Shown piece after piece: positions 5,927 to 63,389 of a stretch of 64,000 bases of DNA. Each line of letters starts with the position of its first letter. Position 1 is the stretch's first letter. The stretch comes from Gammaproteobacteria bacterium (GTDB lineage Bacteria; Pseudomonadota; Gammaproteobacteria; Enterobacterales; Psychrobiaceae): positions 124,001 to 188,000 of the forward strand of contig JABSRT010000006.1 in NCBI GenBank assembly GCA_013214945.1, read 5' to 3'. A program made the position numbers and the translations under genes. Under the pieces are notes generated by a model. The model saw only the letters and a program-made list of their open reading frames with translations. It was not told the DNA's origin and ran no database searches.

Positions 5927-6333
5927 TGATGTTAAGCATAGGTCAGGCATCACAACAAACAGAGTTACCCACTAAAACCATTCGTTATTATGAAGATTCA
6001 GGGCTGATCTCACCACCGCAACGAGGTGATAATGGTTACCGGCGTTATGATGAAAATAATATTCGCGAGTTGAAATTTGCCAAAGCGGCGCGTCAAGCTG
6101 GTTTTTCCGTGCTTGAAACTAAAGAGTTGATAAATTTGTTTCGGGATAAAAATCGCGCCAGCAGTGCAGTAAAAGAGCTCACAGTAAAAAAAATTAACCA
6201 AGTGCAGCAACGGATAACCGCTATGACTAAGATGCTCAATCAGCTTGAGTTGCTGGCAGAGCATTGCCATGGCGATGAAAATCCGCAGTGTTCAATCTTA
6301 GATGGCTTGGAAAATAATTCATTATTGCCTTGA
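5926..6333 (+). CDS. cueR: Cu(I)-responsive MerR-family regulator CueR
   Basis: This 135-residue activator senses cytoplasmic Cu(I) and activates copper-efflux promoters. The N-terminal winged-helix region (about 3-70, with TIRYYEDSGLI) is followed by a dimerisation helix. A metal-binding loop CHGDENPQC has two cysteines (C114, C122) spaced as in E. coli CueR. The serine that in CueR favours monovalent ions (Ser77 of E. coli; ZntR has Cys) appears conserved in the RASSAVKE stretch. The start overlaps the copA stop by one base. A second Met directly follows, so the start could be at 5929. In E. coli copA and cueR are separate loci; here they form one operon. Confidence 0.93.
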   Translation: MMLSIGQASQQTELPTKTIRYYEDSGLISPPQRGDNGYRRYDENNIRELKFAKAARQAGFSVLETKELINLFRDKNRASSAVKELTVKKINQVQQRITAMTKMLNQLELLAEHCHGDENPQCSILDGLENNSLLP

Positions 6334-57250: not shown

Positions 57251-60034
57251 ATGGCTACAATTCCTGAAAACCCTTTTATTCTCGTTGATGGTTCCTCTTA
57301 TCTGTTTCGTGCGTTTTTTTCGCCACCACATTTAACGAATTCTAAAGGCGAAGCCACTGGCGCTGTATACGGTGTCATTAATATGTTGCGCAGTTTAGTT
57401 AAGCAATACAAACCGTCAAATATGGTGGTGGTATTCGATGCTAAGGGCAAAACGTTCCGCAATGACATGTATAGTGAATATAAGGCCAATCGACCGCCGA
57501 TGCCTGATGATTTACGGATTCAAATCGAACCATTACATGAGCTTATTCGTGCGATGGGCTTGCCGCTTATATCGATTGCTGGTGTTGAAGCCGATGATGT
57601 TATTGGTACATTGTCGACGTTGGCGAGCAAGCGGGGCATACACACGCTAATTAGTACCGGCGATAAAGACATGGCGCAGTTAGTTGATCAAAATACCACG
57701 CTGATTAATACCATGACAGACACGGTATTGGATCGTGACGGTGTGATCGGCAAATTTGGTGTGCCACCAGAGCTTATTATCGATTTACTTGGCTTAATGG
57801 GTGACAGTTCAGACAATATTCCCGGCGTGCCAAAAGTTGGTGAAAAAACCGCGTTAGGCATGCTACAAGGCATTGGCTCGATTAATGATATTTATCAAAA
57901 CATTGATAAGCTGTCTGATTTAAGTTTCCGTGGTGCTAAAACGATTGGCAAACGAATGCTTGAGCATGAAGAAATGGCGCGTTTGTCTTACGACCTAGCC
58001 ACGATCAAGATTGATGTTGAATTAGACCAAGGTTATGACGACTTTAAAATTGCTGAACCACAGCAAGATGAGCTAATAAGACTCTTTGGTCAGCTTGAAT
58101 TTAAGCGCTGGTTGAGCGAAGTGATTGATGGCGGTAATTTATTGGCCAGTGGTCAAGCGAGCACTCAGAACGCTGCTACTGCCGAATCAGCCAATACGAT
58201 TAAAACCAATAACTACCCGGTTATTTACACCCTAGGTCAGCTTAATCAGTGGCATAAAAAACTGACCAATGCAGAGTTATTCTCGTTTGATCTAGAAACC
58301 ACTAGCTTAGATTATATGGCGGCTGAAATTGTCGGCATGTCGTTTGCTGTTCAAACGGGCGATGATAGCTTCGAGGCGGCCTATTTGCCGTTGGCACATG
58401 ATTACGAAGACGCACCTAAGCAAATAGAATTAGCCTTTGCGCTTGAGAAATTTAAAGCACTGCTTGAAGATCCAACAAAAGCTAAAGTCGGCCAAAACCT
58501 TAAATATGATCGTAATGTGTTAGCCAATTATGACATTAAACTGGCGGGTATTAAGTTCGATACCATGCTGGAGTCTTATGTCTTTAACTCGACGGCAGTT
58601 AAGCACAACATGGATGCCTTATCGCTTAAATATTTAAGCCACAAGACCATTAATTTTGAAGACGTTGCAGGTAAAGGCGTTAAACAAAAGACCTTTAATC
58701 AAATTTCTATTCTTGAAGCCGGGCCTTATGCCGCTGAAGATGCTGATATCACCCTAAGGTTGCATCAAAATTTATGGCAAAAGGTCAGTGCTGAGCCGAA
58801 ATTAGCAAGCTTGTTTAATGAGATAGAGTTGCCGTTAATTCCGATCTTATCGGACATTGAACGCCACGGGGTTTTAATTGACGCCGACATGTTGCTTGAG
58901 CAAAGCAAGTATCTAGCCACCCGCATTACTGAGCTCGAACAGCAGGCGTGGAGCTTAGCGGGTGAGGAATTCAACCTAGGCTCACCCAAGCAATTGCAAG
59001 ACGTGTTGTTTAGCGATGAAAAAATGGCACTGCCGGTATTAAAGAAAACGCCTAAAGGCGCGCCGTCGACCAACGAAGAAGTGCTGCAAGAATTAGCGCA
59101 TGATTATGAGTTACCAAAGACTATTTTAGAATACCGCAGCCTGAGTAAACTTAAATCGACCTATACCGACAAGTTACCTTTGTTGATAAATGCGAAAACT
59201 GGCCGGGTTCATACCTCGTATCATCAGGCAGTTACTGCGACAGGGCGTTTGTCGTCAAGCGATCCTAACTTGCAAAACATTCCAATTCGCAGTGAAGAAG
59301 GGCGTAAGATCCGCCAGGCCTTTATTGCGCCTGAGGGATATCAGATTGTCGCGGTCGATTATAGCCAAATTGAATTACGGATTATGGCGCACTTATCGCA
59401 AGATAAAGGCTTGTTAACGGCCTTTGCCAATGACTTAGATATTCACAAAGCCACAGCCAGTGAGGTATTTAATACCCCATTTGATGAGGTGACAACCGAT
59501 CAACGTCGCAGCGCTAAAGCGGTTAACTTTGGTTTAATTTATGGCATGTCGGCGTTTGGTTTAGCCAAACAGCTCGATATTCCACGCGGTTTAGCCCAGC
59601 AATACATTGACAGCTATTTCAGTAAATACCCTGGCGTGCTCGATTATATGGAAAATACTCGGCTATCAGCGGCAGACAAAGGATACGTTGAGACATTAGC
59701 TGGACGTCGTTTGTATTTGGCTGATATTAATGCCAAAAATGGCGCGCGTCGTAAAGCTGCTGAGCGTGCCGCTATTAATGCACCCATGCAAGGAACTGCC
59801 GCCGATATCATTAAAAAGGCGATGATTTTGGTTGCTGGTTGGTTAAGTGAACAACCTAGTGGTGATGCGTCAATGGTCATGCAGGTACACGATGAATTGG
59901 TGTTTGAGGTCAAAACCGAATTGGTTGAACAGTTCTGTAGTAAAATTATCGAACTAATGGCCCAGGCCGCTGATCTTGATGTACCGCTAATTGCTGAAGC
60001 TGGTTTTGGTGATAATTGGGAACAAGCTCATTAA
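57251..60034 (+). CDS. polA: DNA polymerase I
   Basis: PolA fills gaps and removes RNA primers during lagging-strand replication and repair. The 927-residue protein has all three domains. The 5'-3' exonuclease (about 1-290) includes [11 protein letters not shown] and [18 protein letters not shown]. The 3'-5' proofreading domain (about 325-515) keeps the acidic motif FDLETTSLD and YAAEDAD. The polymerase domain (about 520-927) has [17 protein letters not shown], an O-helix with [14 protein letters not shown], and [10 protein letters not shown]. It is a single gene preceded by a long AT-rich leader region. Confidence 0.98.
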
Positions 60035-60120
60035 TTATTATGTTAATAGTAACCAATAGTAATCAATGGCTTAATGTTAACTTTTAAATGGTTTTTTAAA
60101 TAATGCAAAAAACGCGTTAT

Positions 60121-60223
60121 TTTTATGAACTATTGCGCAGCCTCGTTGACTAATCATTGTAGTTAGTTATCTCTGTTGTAAAACATTTCCTTGTTCCGGC
60201 CTTATTTTAGGCTGGTTTTTTTT
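60121..60223 (+). ncRNA. Candidate small RNA, copy A, at the Spot 42 locus
   Basis: This possible structured transcript ends at the terminator CCGGCCT / AGGCTGG (60196-60202 and 60209-60215) with eight Ts. It contains an inner hairpin TGACTAA / TTAGTTA and then the unpaired AAACATTTCCTTGT. In enterobacteria Spot 42 is encoded directly after polA, but I see no sequence match to it. It may equally be just a polA terminator with an upstream stem. Ends are approximate. Confidence 0.35.
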
Positions 60224-60256
60224 GCCTTTTTTCAGTCAACCGTAAAAATTAGTTAT

Positions 60257-60359
60257 TTTTATGAACTATCGAGCAACCTCGTTGACTAATCTTTGTAGTT
60301 AGTTATCTCGATAGTAAAACATTTCCTTGTACCGGCCTTATTTTAGGCTGGTTTTTTTT
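60257..60359 (+). ncRNA. Candidate small RNA, copy B, at the Spot 42 locus
   Basis: Second copy of the unit. Here a perfect 9-bp stem ACTATCGAG (60265-60273) with CTCGATAGT (60307-60315) encloses the inner hairpin TGACTAA (60283-60289) with TTAGTTA (60299-60305). Then comes the same unpaired AAACATTTCCTTGT and a terminator (60332-60359). The first copy lacks the outer stem. A promoter is not clear; TTGACT at 60282 with TATCTC 16 bp later is weak. Confidence 0.38.
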
Positions 60360-60404
60360 GCCTTTTTTCTGTAACCGTGAAAATGTTGATCTATTTTGTC
60401 GCAA

Positions 60405-61370
60405 TTAACACCGTTGCACTTCAAAAGCGATTACTTGATCGATGTGCGTTTGATCTAACGCGAGCATCACTAGCCGATCTATGCCCAAGGCGACTCCTGC
60501 GCAATCGGGCAGACCGGCGTTTAAGGCCGCGATTAAGTTTAAATCAATCGGCTGTGGTGCCAACCCGGCAGCGACTCTTTTTTGATTATCGATTTTGAAT
60601 CGCCGATGTTGCTCATCGCTATCAGCTAACTCATGAAAGCCATTGGCCAGCTCAATACCGCGATAATATACCTCAAATCGTTCGGCGACTCGTGGATCCG
60701 CTGGGCTAATTTGAGCGAGTGCCGCTTGTGAAGCCGGAAAGTCATAAATCATTATCGGGCGCTCAAGGCCAATCTTAGGTTCAATTTTAAAGCAAAATAA
60801 CAATTGCAATAACGTATCGTGATCTTGCTCGGTCGCGACAAAATCACCGAGATCATGCGACATGGCTAATTGGCGCAATTGCTCAATGTCAGCGGTTAGT
60901 GGATCAATGGCTAAATGCTCGATAAAAGCTTGTTGATAGCTCATTGAGTCGCTAGGCGCGGTGTTTAACACTTGTTGCAGCAATATATCCATTTCGGCCA
61001 TCAGGTCAATATGGTTGAACCCCGGGCGATACCATTCCAGCATGGTAAACTCAGGGTTGTGATAGCGGCCCGATTCTTCATTACGAAAAGATTTACAGAT
61101 TTGATAAATGGCACCGCTGCCAGCGCACAACAATCTTTTCATGTGAAACTCAGGTGACGTTTGCAAATACAGCGTTTTACCATTGGCGGCGCCTGGGCCG
61201 ACAAAAGTGGTGTTAAAGGTTTGCAAATGAACGTCAGTGACCGTGGCTTGTGACATCGCTGGGGTATCAACTTCCATGACATCGCGCTGGGCAAAAAAAT
61301 GGCGAACATTTGCTAAAATGCTGGCGCGTTGTTTTAGAGTTGAGATTGAGGCCGAGGGTTGCCAATTCAT
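60405..61370 (-). CDS. epmA: EF-P--(R)-beta-lysine ligase EpmA
   Basis: EpmA (PoxA/GenX/YjeA) attaches (R)-beta-lysine to Lys34 of EF-P. The start at 61370 gives 321 residues beginning [20 protein letters not shown], matching the family N-terminus, with AGGA upstream. The frame continues 11 codons further but lacks support. It is a lysyl-tRNA-synthetase-like class II domain without an anticodon-binding domain. Motif 2 includes [24 protein letters not shown] and motif 3 is at [14 protein letters not shown]. It lies downstream of efp behind that gene's terminator. Confidence 0.96.
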
Positions 61371-61401
61371 GAGGCGTCCTATTTTATTTAGCGCATTAAT
61401 C

Positions 61402-61433
61402 AAAAAAGCCCGCAGTTATAAACCGCGGGCTTT
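61402..61433 (-). terminator. Intrinsic terminator of efp
   Basis: On the minus strand AAAGCCCGC (61433-61425) pairs with GCGGGCTTT (61413-61405) and is followed by a T run to 61402. It lies between the efp stop and the epmA start. Confidence 0.9.
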
Positions 61434-61486
61434 GTGCTAACACTAAGGTAAATTAGTTGTTATTTAACCAGAACTTTTGATAAAGG

Positions 61487-62056
61487 TTATTTAGATACGC
61501 GTGATACGTATTCACCAGAGCGAGTATCTACTTTAATGATTTCGCCAATCTGAATAAATAGTGGAACACGAACTACAGCACCAGTTTTTAAGGTTGCTGG
61601 CTTGCCACCCGTACCAGCGGTATCGCCTTTAAGGCCAGGATCGGTTTCAGTGACTTCTAATTCAACAAAGTTTGCTGGTGTAACAATAATAGGGCTGCCA
61701 TTCCATAAGGTAATAACACAGCTATCTTGTTCAACTAACCATTTTTCATTGTCGCCAATTGCTTTAGCGTCTGCGGCAATTTGCTCAAAAGTTTCAGCAT
61801 TCATGAAATGCCAAAATTCACCATCGCTGTACAGATAGTCAAGATCACATTCCATTACATCGGCTACTTCAACTGTTTCGCCTGATTTGAATGTTTTTTC
61901 AAGTACTTTACCTGAAATTAGTTTACGAACTTTAACGCGGTTAAAGGCCTGACCTTTACCTGGCTTAACTGTCTCGTTGTCAATAATGGTAGTTGGTTCA
62001 CCATCGAGCATGAATTTTAAACCGTTTTTAAATTCGTTTGTGCTAACTGTAGCCAT
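61487..62056 (-). CDS. efp: Elongation factor P
   Basis: EF-P rescues ribosomes stalled at proline runs. The 189-residue protein has the three beta-barrel domains of the family. The modified lysine is K34 in the loop KPGKGQAF, the context recognised by EpmA. A long leader (292 bp to epmB) separates it from the divergent epmB gene. Both modification enzymes are encoded within 2 kb, so the complete beta-lysylation module is clustered here. Confidence 0.97.
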
Positions 62057-62348
62057 GATTTCCTCATTATGTTGTCAGAATCTGTGCTCTGTTACCCAAA
62101 AGATAACTCTCTTAAGTCGCAGGTCTTTATTTACTTAAAGTCAGCAGTGTTACTGGCAGCGTTATTTCATTAAAATAAGTGGTACTGCGTGCAACCTTGA
62201 AGCTGTCTGTCAGCGCGCAATTAATTTATTTTGTTAATCTACGACTGCTAGCCTTACTGACAAAGCACATTATTGTTATAGTTTGTCAATTACTGCTAAC
62301 GATATTAATTGGCAGATTCTACCTGATTAATCACCAATCTAAAAATAA

Positions 62349-63389
62349 ATGATGAAGATAATAGCCCGAAATATGATCACCCCCCAGCTTAGCTGGCAAA
62401 AAGAGTTAAGTCAGGCATTTACTGACCCTGCTAAGCTACTGGAATATTTAGCGATTGATCCTGAACCACTGCTCGGTTCCTTTGCTGCGCGCAAACTATT
62501 CCCGCTGCGGGTACCGGTACCTTTTGCGAACAGAATGCAACGCGGTAATGCCAAGGATCCGCTCTTGTTACAGGTTATGACCTCAGCGTTGGAATTTGAG
62601 CAACAGCCAGGCTTTGGTGCCGATCCCCTCGTTGAACAAATCGAGCAAGTGACCCCCTTACCTGGCTTATTACATAAATATGAAAACCGGGTGTTACTCA
62701 TGGTAAGAACGGGTTGTGCCGTTAATTGCCGTTATTGCTTTCGACGCCATTTTCCCTATCAAGACAACAGCCCCAATAAGCAAGGCTTTAAAGATGCCGC
62801 ACTTTATATTGGTCAGCGGCCTCAGATCAATGAGGTGATCTTATCGGGCGGCGATCCGTTAATGGCCAATGATGATCAGCTTAGTGCTTTAATGGCGCTG
62901 CTAGAGCCGATTCCCCATTTGACCCGTGTGCGGATCCACACCCGGTTGCCGGTGGTTATTCCAGCGCGGATAACCGAGCAATTTGTTGAGCTGTGCCGTA
63001 ATAGCCGGCTTAAACTAATAATGGTGTTGCACATTAACCACCCCAATGAAATTGATGACACGGTCAGTGAGTTTGTACAGCGGTTGAAACAAGCAGGGGT
63101 GACGATGCTAAATCAGGCGGTGTTATTACGAGACATTAATGACAGTGCAGCGGTGCAAGCGCAGCTGAGCGAAGCATTATTTGACGCTGGAATATTACCT
63201 TATTACTTACACTTACTCGATAAGGTCGCTGGCGCGAGCCATTTTGATACTCCCGAGACTAAGGCCATCACGATGATGCGTCAGCTGCATCAGCAACTGC
63301 CGGGCTTCTTGGTTCCTAAATTAGTCAGAGAAATTGGTGGCGAGGCTCACAAAACACCGATAGATCTTGGGTTATTTCCCAAGGTATAA
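62349..63389 (+). CDS. epmB: EF-P beta-lysylation protein EpmB (lysine 2,3-aminomutase)
   Basis: EpmB converts (S)-alpha-lysine to (R)-beta-lysine, the substrate EpmA puts on EF-P. The 346-residue radical SAM enzyme has the cluster cysteines C123, C127 and C130 (CAVNCRYC) followed by FRRHFPYQDN. The SAM-binding ILSGGDPLM and a C-terminal HLLDKVAGASHFDTPE region match the aminomutase family. Three Met codons (62349, 62352, 62373) are possible starts; none has a clear ribosome site. It is divergent from efp. Confidence 0.95.
   Translation: MMKIIARNMITPQLSWQKELSQAFTDPAKLLEYLAIDPEPLLGSFAARKLFPLRVPVPFANRMQRGNAKDPLLLQVMTSALEFEQQPGFGADPLVEQIEQVTPLPGLLHKYENRVLLMVRTGCAVNCRYCFRRHFPYQDNSPNKQGFKDAALYIGQRPQINEVILSGGDPLMANDDQLSALMALLEPIPHLTRVRIHTRLPVVIPARITEQFVELCRNSRLKLIMVLHINHPNEIDDTVSEFVQRLKQAGVTMLNQAVLLRDINDSAAVQAQLSEALFDAGILPYYLHLLDKVAGASHFDTPETKAITMMRQLHQQLPGFLVPKLVREIGGEAHKTPIDLGLFPKV

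What the first reader, a model, noticed from the sequence alone, without database searches (positions are those of the whole stretch)
60116..60385. Tandem duplicated sRNA-like unit at the Spot 42 position after polA
Two 136-bp units each end in a full intrinsic terminator and keep an identical inner hairpin and unpaired stretch (AAACATTTCCTTGT). The second also has a perfect 9-bp outer stem. Two terminators in a row each with their own conserved leader is more than polA needs. Enterobacteria encode Spot 42 here, yet I see no Spot 42 sequence, so this may be an undescribed sRNA pair.
Basis: partly seen in the sequence, partly recalled or inferred. Interest (0 to 1): 0.65.

Follow-up and report, generated by a model that had tools for sequence, protein, structure and literature searches.

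The report
Twin stress-type small-RNA genes beside polA
Right after the DNA polymerase I gene of a marine bacterium sit two near-identical genes for what looks like a short regulatory RNA, each with its own envelope-stress-type promoter and terminator; the arrangement recurs in its relatives and in a second bacterial family, so it is very likely a real, undescribed RNA gene family that is not Spot 42.

Summary
Two 136-bp units (60108-60243, 60244-60379) follow polA. All 9 held genomes of the genus (Psychrobium) and a tenth relative carry 1-3 copies there. In all 15 units TGAAC and TGACTAA stand at one fixed spacing: an ECF/sigma-E-type promoter (GAACTW-N15-GACTAA; the genus's own rpoE promoter reads GAACTT-N15-GTCTAT/C). 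The 5' arm of the 'inner hairpin' is the -10 box, its 3' arm the RNA's 5' end; the outer stem is not conserved. Predicted product: a 66-nt RNA (60158-60223; 60294-60359) with an unpaired 5' end, a UUUCCUUGU stretch and a covarying terminator. The same boxes follow polA in 21 of 24 genomes of a second family; Spot 42 is detected in none of the 9 nor of the 24. Rheinheimera has such a unit (canonical GTCTGA) and, beyond it, Spot 42, so they are separate genes. Nearest known analogue: Pseudomonas ErsA. Transcription, sigma factor and targets are unproven: the -10 has A where the rpoE promoter has T, and target searches found nothing.

The parts
57251..60034 (+). polA, DNA polymerase I, directly upstream
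   Evidence: NCBIfam NF004397 and TIGR00593 over their cut-offs
60108..60243 (+). repeat unit 1
60126..60131 (+). unit 1 predicted -35 box TGAACT
   Evidence: TGAAC invariant at fixed spacing in 15 of 15 units
   Evidence: spacing equals that of the rpoE promoter
60158..60223 (+). unit 1 predicted sRNA, 66 nt (start inferred from promoter spacing and from where conservation begins)
60196..60223 (+). unit 1 intrinsic terminator and T-run
   Evidence: covariation
60244..60379 (+). repeat unit 2
60262..60267 (+). unit 2 predicted -35 box TGAACT
60283..60289 (+). unit 2 predicted -10 box TGACTAA
60294..60359 (+). unit 2 predicted sRNA, 66 nt, 62 of 66 positions identical to unit 1
60331..60359 (+). 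unit 2 intrinsic terminator and T-run
   Evidence: covariation
60405..61403 (-). epmA, convergent neighbour, not part of the sRNA locus
   Evidence: NCBIfam TIGR00462 and NF006828 over their cut-offs; not directly downstream in the relatives

Best explanation
Two tandem genes for one short trans-acting sRNA. SHOWN by sequence comparison: each unit has its own fixed pair of conserved promoter-like boxes, a conserved transcript-like stretch and its own covarying intrinsic terminator; the arrangement is kept after polA across the genus and, with the same boxes, in most genomes of another family. INFERRED: RNA polymerase with an ECF sigma factor, most likely RpoE (sigma-E), starts each RNA at about 60158 and 60294 when the cell envelope is stressed; the 66-nt RNA ends at the terminator U-run (the usual Hfq-binding end, recalled); the conserved 5' end (UGUAGUUAGUUAUCUC) and the pyrimidine stretch (UUUCCUUGU, complementary to AGGAAA-type ribosome sites) pair with target mRNAs and block translation, as MicA, RybB or ErsA do elsewhere (recalled). 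The tandem copies, 1-3 per genome, raise the dose of the same regulator. The first terminator would also close the polA transcript.
For: Units in 9 of 9 held genus genomes and in L010, 15 in all. TGAAC exactly 21 bases before TGACTAA in 15 of 15. Same spacing as the rpoE promoter of the nine genomes (GAACTT-N15-GTCTAT in 8, GTCTAC in 1; read by eye, eight of them also listed). Conservation resumes 4-5 bases after the -10 box, where a transcript would start; TGTAGTTAGTTATCTC is exact in 11 of 15 units. Terminator helix 98.9% paired with two-sided changes in 5 of 6 pairs. Same boxes and spacing behind polA in 21 of 24 genomes of a second family although the transcript and the hairpin differ. Canonical sigma-E boxes (GTCTGA, GTCAGA) close behind polA in 4 of 76 named loci (shuffles 0.25) and 5 of 60 class genomes (shuffles 0.33). 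Rheinheimera carries such a unit beside Spot 42. ErsA, also beside polA, is sigma-22-dependent (passages).
Against: No RNA data. All 15 genus units and the 21 units of the second family have A (GAC) where rpoE and the other lineages have T (GTC), so RpoE recognition is uncertain, and the genomes hold 4-14 RpoE-family matches each. TGACTAA was the anchor by which units were picked, so its own invariance is partly by selection. The promoter pattern as such is not enriched in the nine genomes: 39 matches against 88 of the reversed control. The inner hairpin is paired in 14 of 15 genus units and 9 of 21 of the second family, so a role in RNA is not excluded. No target found. R1 over whole genomes of the second family reached E 0.001 in only 3 of 24; the 21 rest on reading behind polA.
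Confidence: 0.7

Rival explanations
1. The transcript starts upstream of TGAACT and the conserved inner hairpin is a functional 5' element of a longer (about 100-nt) RNA.
For: Whole units fold better than shuffles; both hairpin arms are nearly invariant in the genus, with loops of 7-9 nt; the hairpin is predicted in 14 of 15 genus units and 9 of 21 of the second family.
Against: No two-sided change in the hairpin; the closing arm is present in 5 of 21 units of the second family while the two boxes stay in 21 of 24; a variable stretch of constant length between the boxes is unusual for an RNA element and usual for a promoter; other lineages have canonical sigma-E boxes at the equivalent place.
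Confidence: 0.12
2. The promoter is read by an ECF sigma factor other than RpoE, so the RNA answers to another signal than envelope stress.
For: GAC instead of GTC in the -10 box in all 15 genus units and 21 of 21 of the second family; two further copies in L203 have TACTAA; several RpoE-family matches per genome.
Against: -35 box and spacing equal those of the rpoE promoter, and units in other genera keep GTCTGA or GTCAGA.
Confidence: 0.25
3. Plain duplicated polA terminators without an RNA gene.
For: Each unit ends in a good intrinsic terminator directly behind polA; no expression data.
Against: A terminator needs neither a 16-base conserved leader nor two boxes at fixed spacing; the boxes are shared with another family; all 15 units, 1-3 per genome, carry the whole set, not the terminator alone.
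Confidence: 0.06
4. A strongly diverged Spot 42.
For: Same place behind polA.
Against: No Spot 42 match in 9 of 9 genus genomes and 24 of 24 of the second family, though 21 of 58 genomes of the order sample match at E up to 0.001; Rheinheimera has both genes.
Confidence: 0.02

Closest known systems
ErsA of Pseudomonas aeruginosa
   Same: Lies next to polA (flanking genes PA5492 and PA5493 in PMC8545128, table passage; that PA5493 is polA is recalled); strictly dependent on sigma-22, the functional homologue of E. coli sigma-E, and responsive to envelope stress (PMC7565897, passages).
   Different: 132 nt (PMC5819304, passage) against a predicted 66 nt; one gene as far as the passages tell, against 1-3 tandem copies; ErsA's own sequence was not fetched or compared; sigma control is inferred here.
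Spot 42 (spf)
   Same: Position behind polA; short RNA with an intrinsic terminator.
   Different: No sequence match; Spot 42 is repressed by cAMP-CRP (recalled; PMC3295665 passages), while the units carry an ECF-type promoter; both genes coexist in Rheinheimera.
sX13 of Xanthomonas and alpha-r7 sRNAs
   Same: Encoded beside polA (PMC3771888, passages).
   Different: sX13 is 115 nt with three C-rich loops and is reported only from Xanthomonadaceae; the present RNA has one terminator stem and no C-rich loops.
Sigma-E-dependent sRNAs MicA, RybB, MicL (E. coli), VrrA (Vibrio)
   Same: Sigma-E-type promoter, short RNA, 5' end available for pairing (recalled).
   Different: Other loci; no match to VrrA above its gathering score (17.1 against 50 bits); targets here unknown.
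VSsrna24 of Vibrionaceae
   Same: About 60-nt sRNA in the same intergenic region as spf, behind polA (PMC3295665, passages).
   Different: Lies downstream of spf, reported as limited to Vibrionaceae, glucose-repressed and generally not affected by the stresses tried; sequences were not compared.

Membership tests
Spot 42 (RF00021) | Match to the Rfam covariance model | tested here: not met
   Not in the window at gathering nor among 10 matches with E up to 10 around the units; 0 of 9 genus genomes
Spot 42 (RF00021) | Place directly behind polA | tested here: met
   polA at 57251-60034
Spot 42 (RF00021) | CRP-repressed sigma-70 promoter | not tested
   No scan for a CRP site was made; an ECF-type promoter is present instead
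ErsA | Place beside polA | tested here: met
   for polA here; PMC8545128 passage for ErsA
ErsA | Sigma-22/sigma-E-type promoter | tested here: inconclusive
   -35 box and spacing fit the genus's rpoE promoter, -10 has GAC instead of GTC
ErsA | Length of 132 nt | tested here: not met
   Predicted 66 nt; length from PMC5819304 passage
ErsA | Sequence similarity to ErsA | not tested
   The ErsA sequence was not fetched
Sigma-E-dependent Hfq-binding trans-acting sRNA (functional class) | Own sigma-E promoter | tested here: inconclusive
   Motif and spacing present, sigma factor not tested
Sigma-E-dependent Hfq-binding trans-acting sRNA (functional class) | Rho-independent terminator with U-run | tested here: met
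Sigma-E-dependent Hfq-binding trans-acting sRNA (functional class) | Expression as a discrete RNA, Hfq binding | not testable with these tools
   Needs RNA-seq, Northern blot, Hfq pull-down
Sigma-E-dependent Hfq-binding trans-acting sRNA (functional class) | Base pairing with envelope-protein mRNAs | tested here: inconclusive
   No long complement at a shared gene start; rpoE mRNA no better than shuffles; outer-membrane genes were not examined

The most novel reading that the evidence does not exclude
The slot behind polA is an old envelope-stress sRNA locus of Gammaproteobacteria: ErsA, the units described here and those of the Psychromonas-like, Rheinheimera, Alteromonadaceae and Idiomarina-like bacteria descend from one sigma-E-driven gene whose promoter and position are kept while the transcript drifts, and Spot 42 is a separate neighbour added in some lineages. 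In Psychrobium the gene is multiplied in tandem, and this lineage and the second family have moved to a new -10 box.
Probability: 0.35. Interest if true: 0.65.

Novelty: new member of a known kind. Interest (0 to 1): 0.5.

Why it matters
It adds an sRNA family not matched in Rfam 15, with promoter, transcript and terminator delimited to testable coordinates, to a locus for which the sX13 authors asked whether other bacteria encode sRNAs too (PMC3771888, passage). It suggests that sigma-E-type promoters close behind polA recur in several gammaproteobacterial families, that Spot 42 and the sigma-E-type gene can lie side by side, and that two groups without detectable Spot 42 still use the slot. 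The 1-3 tandem copies within one genus are a natural case of changing sRNA dosage.

Tried and rejected
Spot 42 identity: rejected. Outer stem of unit 2 as a conserved structure: rejected. A sigma-70 promoter with TTGACT as -35 box: considered by eye only; the base before TGACT varies between units, no TATAAT-like box stands at the right distance, and TGAACT would be left unexplained. Leader or attenuator of the next gene: rejected, epmA follows directly only in the window; in the nine other genomes it lies further on (L006, L009) or gave no match in the stretch held. Long conserved antisense targets: none. rpoE mRNA as target (its ribosome site GGAGATAA looked complementary): shuffled sRNAs did as well or better in 27-90% of shuffles in the nine genomes, one unit per genome. 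One search covered the promoter with a spacing one base off (my counting error) and so missed the units; one search repeats it with the right spacing. One search failed on a script error and on an off-by-one pattern; replace them. R1 on four loci with Spot 42: two matches, the better (E 0.006) lies on the other strand at what looks like the end of another gene with a terminator, taken as chance. Weak R1 matches in Shewanella loci and L046 (E 0.15-3.5) coincide with another conserved element.

Rows dropped and limits: L011-L013 were left out of the 15 units because they are the same contigs as those of G006-G008 (equal lengths, equal sequence). In the second family 3 of 24 genomes (L185, L198, L204) showed no promoter of this kind. 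The class survey read the 60 best-scoring of the 148 genomes other than the window's with a polA match; one of the 60 stretches (L241) is cut short by its contig's end. The 76 named loci are L014-L089, the nearest polA relatives returned, not a balanced sample. R1 was run on 26 of those 76 and on the 24 polA loci of the second family. Only 6 of the 15 transcripts were folded alone.

Full report
WHAT IS THERE. The window comes from a genome of 4,699,491 bases. Its genus is taken as Psychrobium because genus member G008 has the contig of the named record 'Psychrobium sp. isolate DT_95' (equal contig length and sequence). Behind polA (57251-60034) lie two head-to-tail units of 136 bp, 88% identical, each with an intrinsic terminator. 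The next gene, epmA, is convergent.

CONSERVATION. A DNA search of 58 genomes (own genus and order) found the units in 9 of 9 genomes of the genus and in none of the 49 others. Reading downstream of polA in these 9 genomes and in L010, a tenth relative, gives 15 units: three in one genome (G005), two in three genomes (the window's, G006, G007), one in the other six. epmA follows directly only in the window's genome. The two window units are each other's closest match (91.8% over the aligned core; best match in another genome 80-81%), and the three G005 copies group together, but the first units of G006 and G007 match each other better (95.2%) than their own second units, so one duplication is shared there; the tree also puts the single G003 unit beside window unit 2 with weak support (0.55). 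Multiplication happened more than once, or copies are kept alike by conversion.

ANATOMY. Aligned on TGACTAA (the anchor by which units were picked), TGAAC stands exactly 21 bases upstream in 15 of 15 units, and most bases between vary (the automatic distance gave the same in 14 of 15 and was misled in L010 by a second GAAC). After TGACTAA come 4-5 variable bases, then TGTAGTTAGTTATCTC (exact in 11 of 15), a looser stretch, TTTCCTTGT (exact in 11 of 15) and the terminator. This is the layout of a promoter (-35, spacer, -10, discriminator) followed by a transcribed 5' end. Upstream of rpoE in the same nine genomes stands GAACTT-N15-GTCTAT (GTCTAC in one), the expected autoregulated sigma-E promoter, with the same spacing as GAACTW-N15-GACTAA of the units (read by eye). 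In the window's genome GAACTW-N15-GWCTAW occurs three times: at rpoE and at the two units. Over the nine genomes there are 39 matches (13 units, 8 rpoE promoters, 18 others) against 88 of the reversed control pattern, so the pattern as such is not enriched and the argument rests on place and conservation.

STRUCTURE TEST. Pairs counted on the 15-row alignment: terminator helix 98.9% paired, 5 of 6 pairs with changes on both sides; inner hairpin 97-100% paired but without a two-sided change; outer stem 26.7% and 32.8% paired in its two halves. Only the terminator has covariation support. Of 6 transcripts folded alone, the 5' 16 bases are unpaired in both window units and partly paired in the four others; the terminator is the main structure.

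BEYOND THE GENUS. A covariance model of the whole unit (R1), run over 295 genomes of the order, matched the nine genus genomes and three genomes of one other family, all three behind polA. At whole-genome E-values R1 finds 3 of 24 genomes of that family. Reading behind polA in all 24 shows GAAC(T/C)-N15-NGAC(T/A)AA in 21 of 24, 3-78 nt after the stop codon in 19 and 282 and 443 nt in two, with a terminator visible by eye in most. R1 run on the polA loci alone places matches in the same 21 (best E per locus from 2.8e-6 to 0.054); one genome (L203) has three tandem units, the second and third with TACTAA. The arm that would close the inner hairpin (TTAGT) is present in 5 of 21 and the -10 box is paired in the predicted fold in 9 of 21, against 14 of 15 for both in the genus. 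The boxes are kept where the hairpin often is not, which favours the promoter reading.

SIGMA-E-TYPE PROMOTERS AT POLA ELSEWHERE. A scan of the 260 nt behind polA for GAAC[TCA]-N15..17-G[TA]C[ATG][AG]A found 4 of 76 named loci (mean 0.25 in base-shuffled sequence, 1 reversed, 0 on the other strand): Rheinheimera aquimaris (GTCTGA), Alteromonadaceae M269 (GTCTGA), Pseudidiomarina piscicola (GTCAGA) and an Oceanospirillales MAG (GTCTGA). In 60 class genomes 5 had one (mean 0.33 in shuffles, 0 reversed, 0 other strand), all with GTC and all followed by a CTCCC(T/A)GAGC-type stretch; one of these RNAs reaches Rfam's anti-hemB family (57.8 bits, gathering 49.5). Most loci surveyed (72 of 76; 55 of 60) show no such promoter. 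In those that do, the -10 box has GTC; the GAC form is confined to the genus and the second family. A transcript-only model (R2) gives weak matches at the expected places in Rheinheimera (E 0.056), in four genomes of the second family (E 0.009-0.14) and about 310 nt behind polA in Paraglaciecola arctica (E 0.0096): compatible with common descent, not proof of it.

NOT SPOT 42. No Spot 42 match in the genus (0 of 9, while 21 of the 58 genomes sampled match at E up to 0.001 and 11 exceed the cut-off, strict filters) nor in the second family (0 of 24). In Rheinheimera aquimaris the polA locus carries the sigma-E-type unit (L036 5803-5899) and then Spot 42 (6012-6134; 56.5 bits, below the gathering score of 80, E 3e-10 in a 521-base search, core AAGATGTTCTATCTTTCA intact). 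They are different genes.

LITERATURE. ErsA lies between PA5492 and PA5493 (table passage of PMC8545128; PA5493 as polA is recalled), is strictly sigma-22-dependent and responsive to envelope stress (passages of PMC7565897) and 132 nt long (passage of PMC5819304). The sX13 paper (passages of PMC3771888) has a section on sRNAs at the polA locus and leaves open whether other bacteria have them. Listings searched for an account of the present RNA: Psychrobium (27 papers, 10 listed), polA with ErsA and Spot 42 (1), Spot 42 with spf and Alteromonadales (0), 'downstream of polA' with sRNA (1), polA with sigmaE-dependent and sRNA (80, 10 listed). None of the titles or abstract starts listed describes it; the library lacks most subscription journals.

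FUNCTION. The inferred mode of action is that of a short trans-acting sRNA under an envelope-stress sigma factor. Target searches failed: complements of the 16-nt 5' end with up to 2 mismatches number 24 outside the units in nine genomes, against 62 of the reversed control, and no two lie at the start of visibly the same gene; pairing with the rpoE ribosome site is no better than with shuffled sRNA.

VERDICT. Independent transcription and sigma-E control are inferences from sequence.

Noticed in passing
30 of 76 named loci between L014 and L053, e.g. L019 about 457 nt and L036 about 531 nt after the polA stop: A second conserved RNA-like element at the polA locus: AUAGC(U/C)UCUCCCC...GCUAU hairpin plus terminator, in Shewanella, Pseudoalteromonas, Rheinheimera and Psychrosphaera. 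Seven loci scanned against Rfam, six of them with the element, gave no family other than Spot 42 at gathering. It was not seen in the genus or the second family.
   Followed up: partly
L036 5796-6400 (Rheinheimera aquimaris): Three RNA-like elements in a row behind polA: a sigma-E-type unit, Spot 42 and the CUUCUCCCC element.
   Followed up: partly
L261 292-381 (minus strand): An RNA behind a GAACTA/GTCTGA promoter downstream of polA matches Rfam anti-hemB (57.8 bits); four other class genomes have a similar CTCCC(T/A)GAGC stretch behind such a promoter.
   Followed up: no
L203 1968-2428 (genome G246): Three tandem sigma-E-type units also in a genome of the second family, the second and third with TACTAA as -10 box.
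   Followed up: no
window 60405-63389: epmA, efp and epmB, the EF-P beta-lysylation genes, lie together right behind the sRNA pair; epmA does not directly follow the units in the other nine genomes.
   Followed up: no
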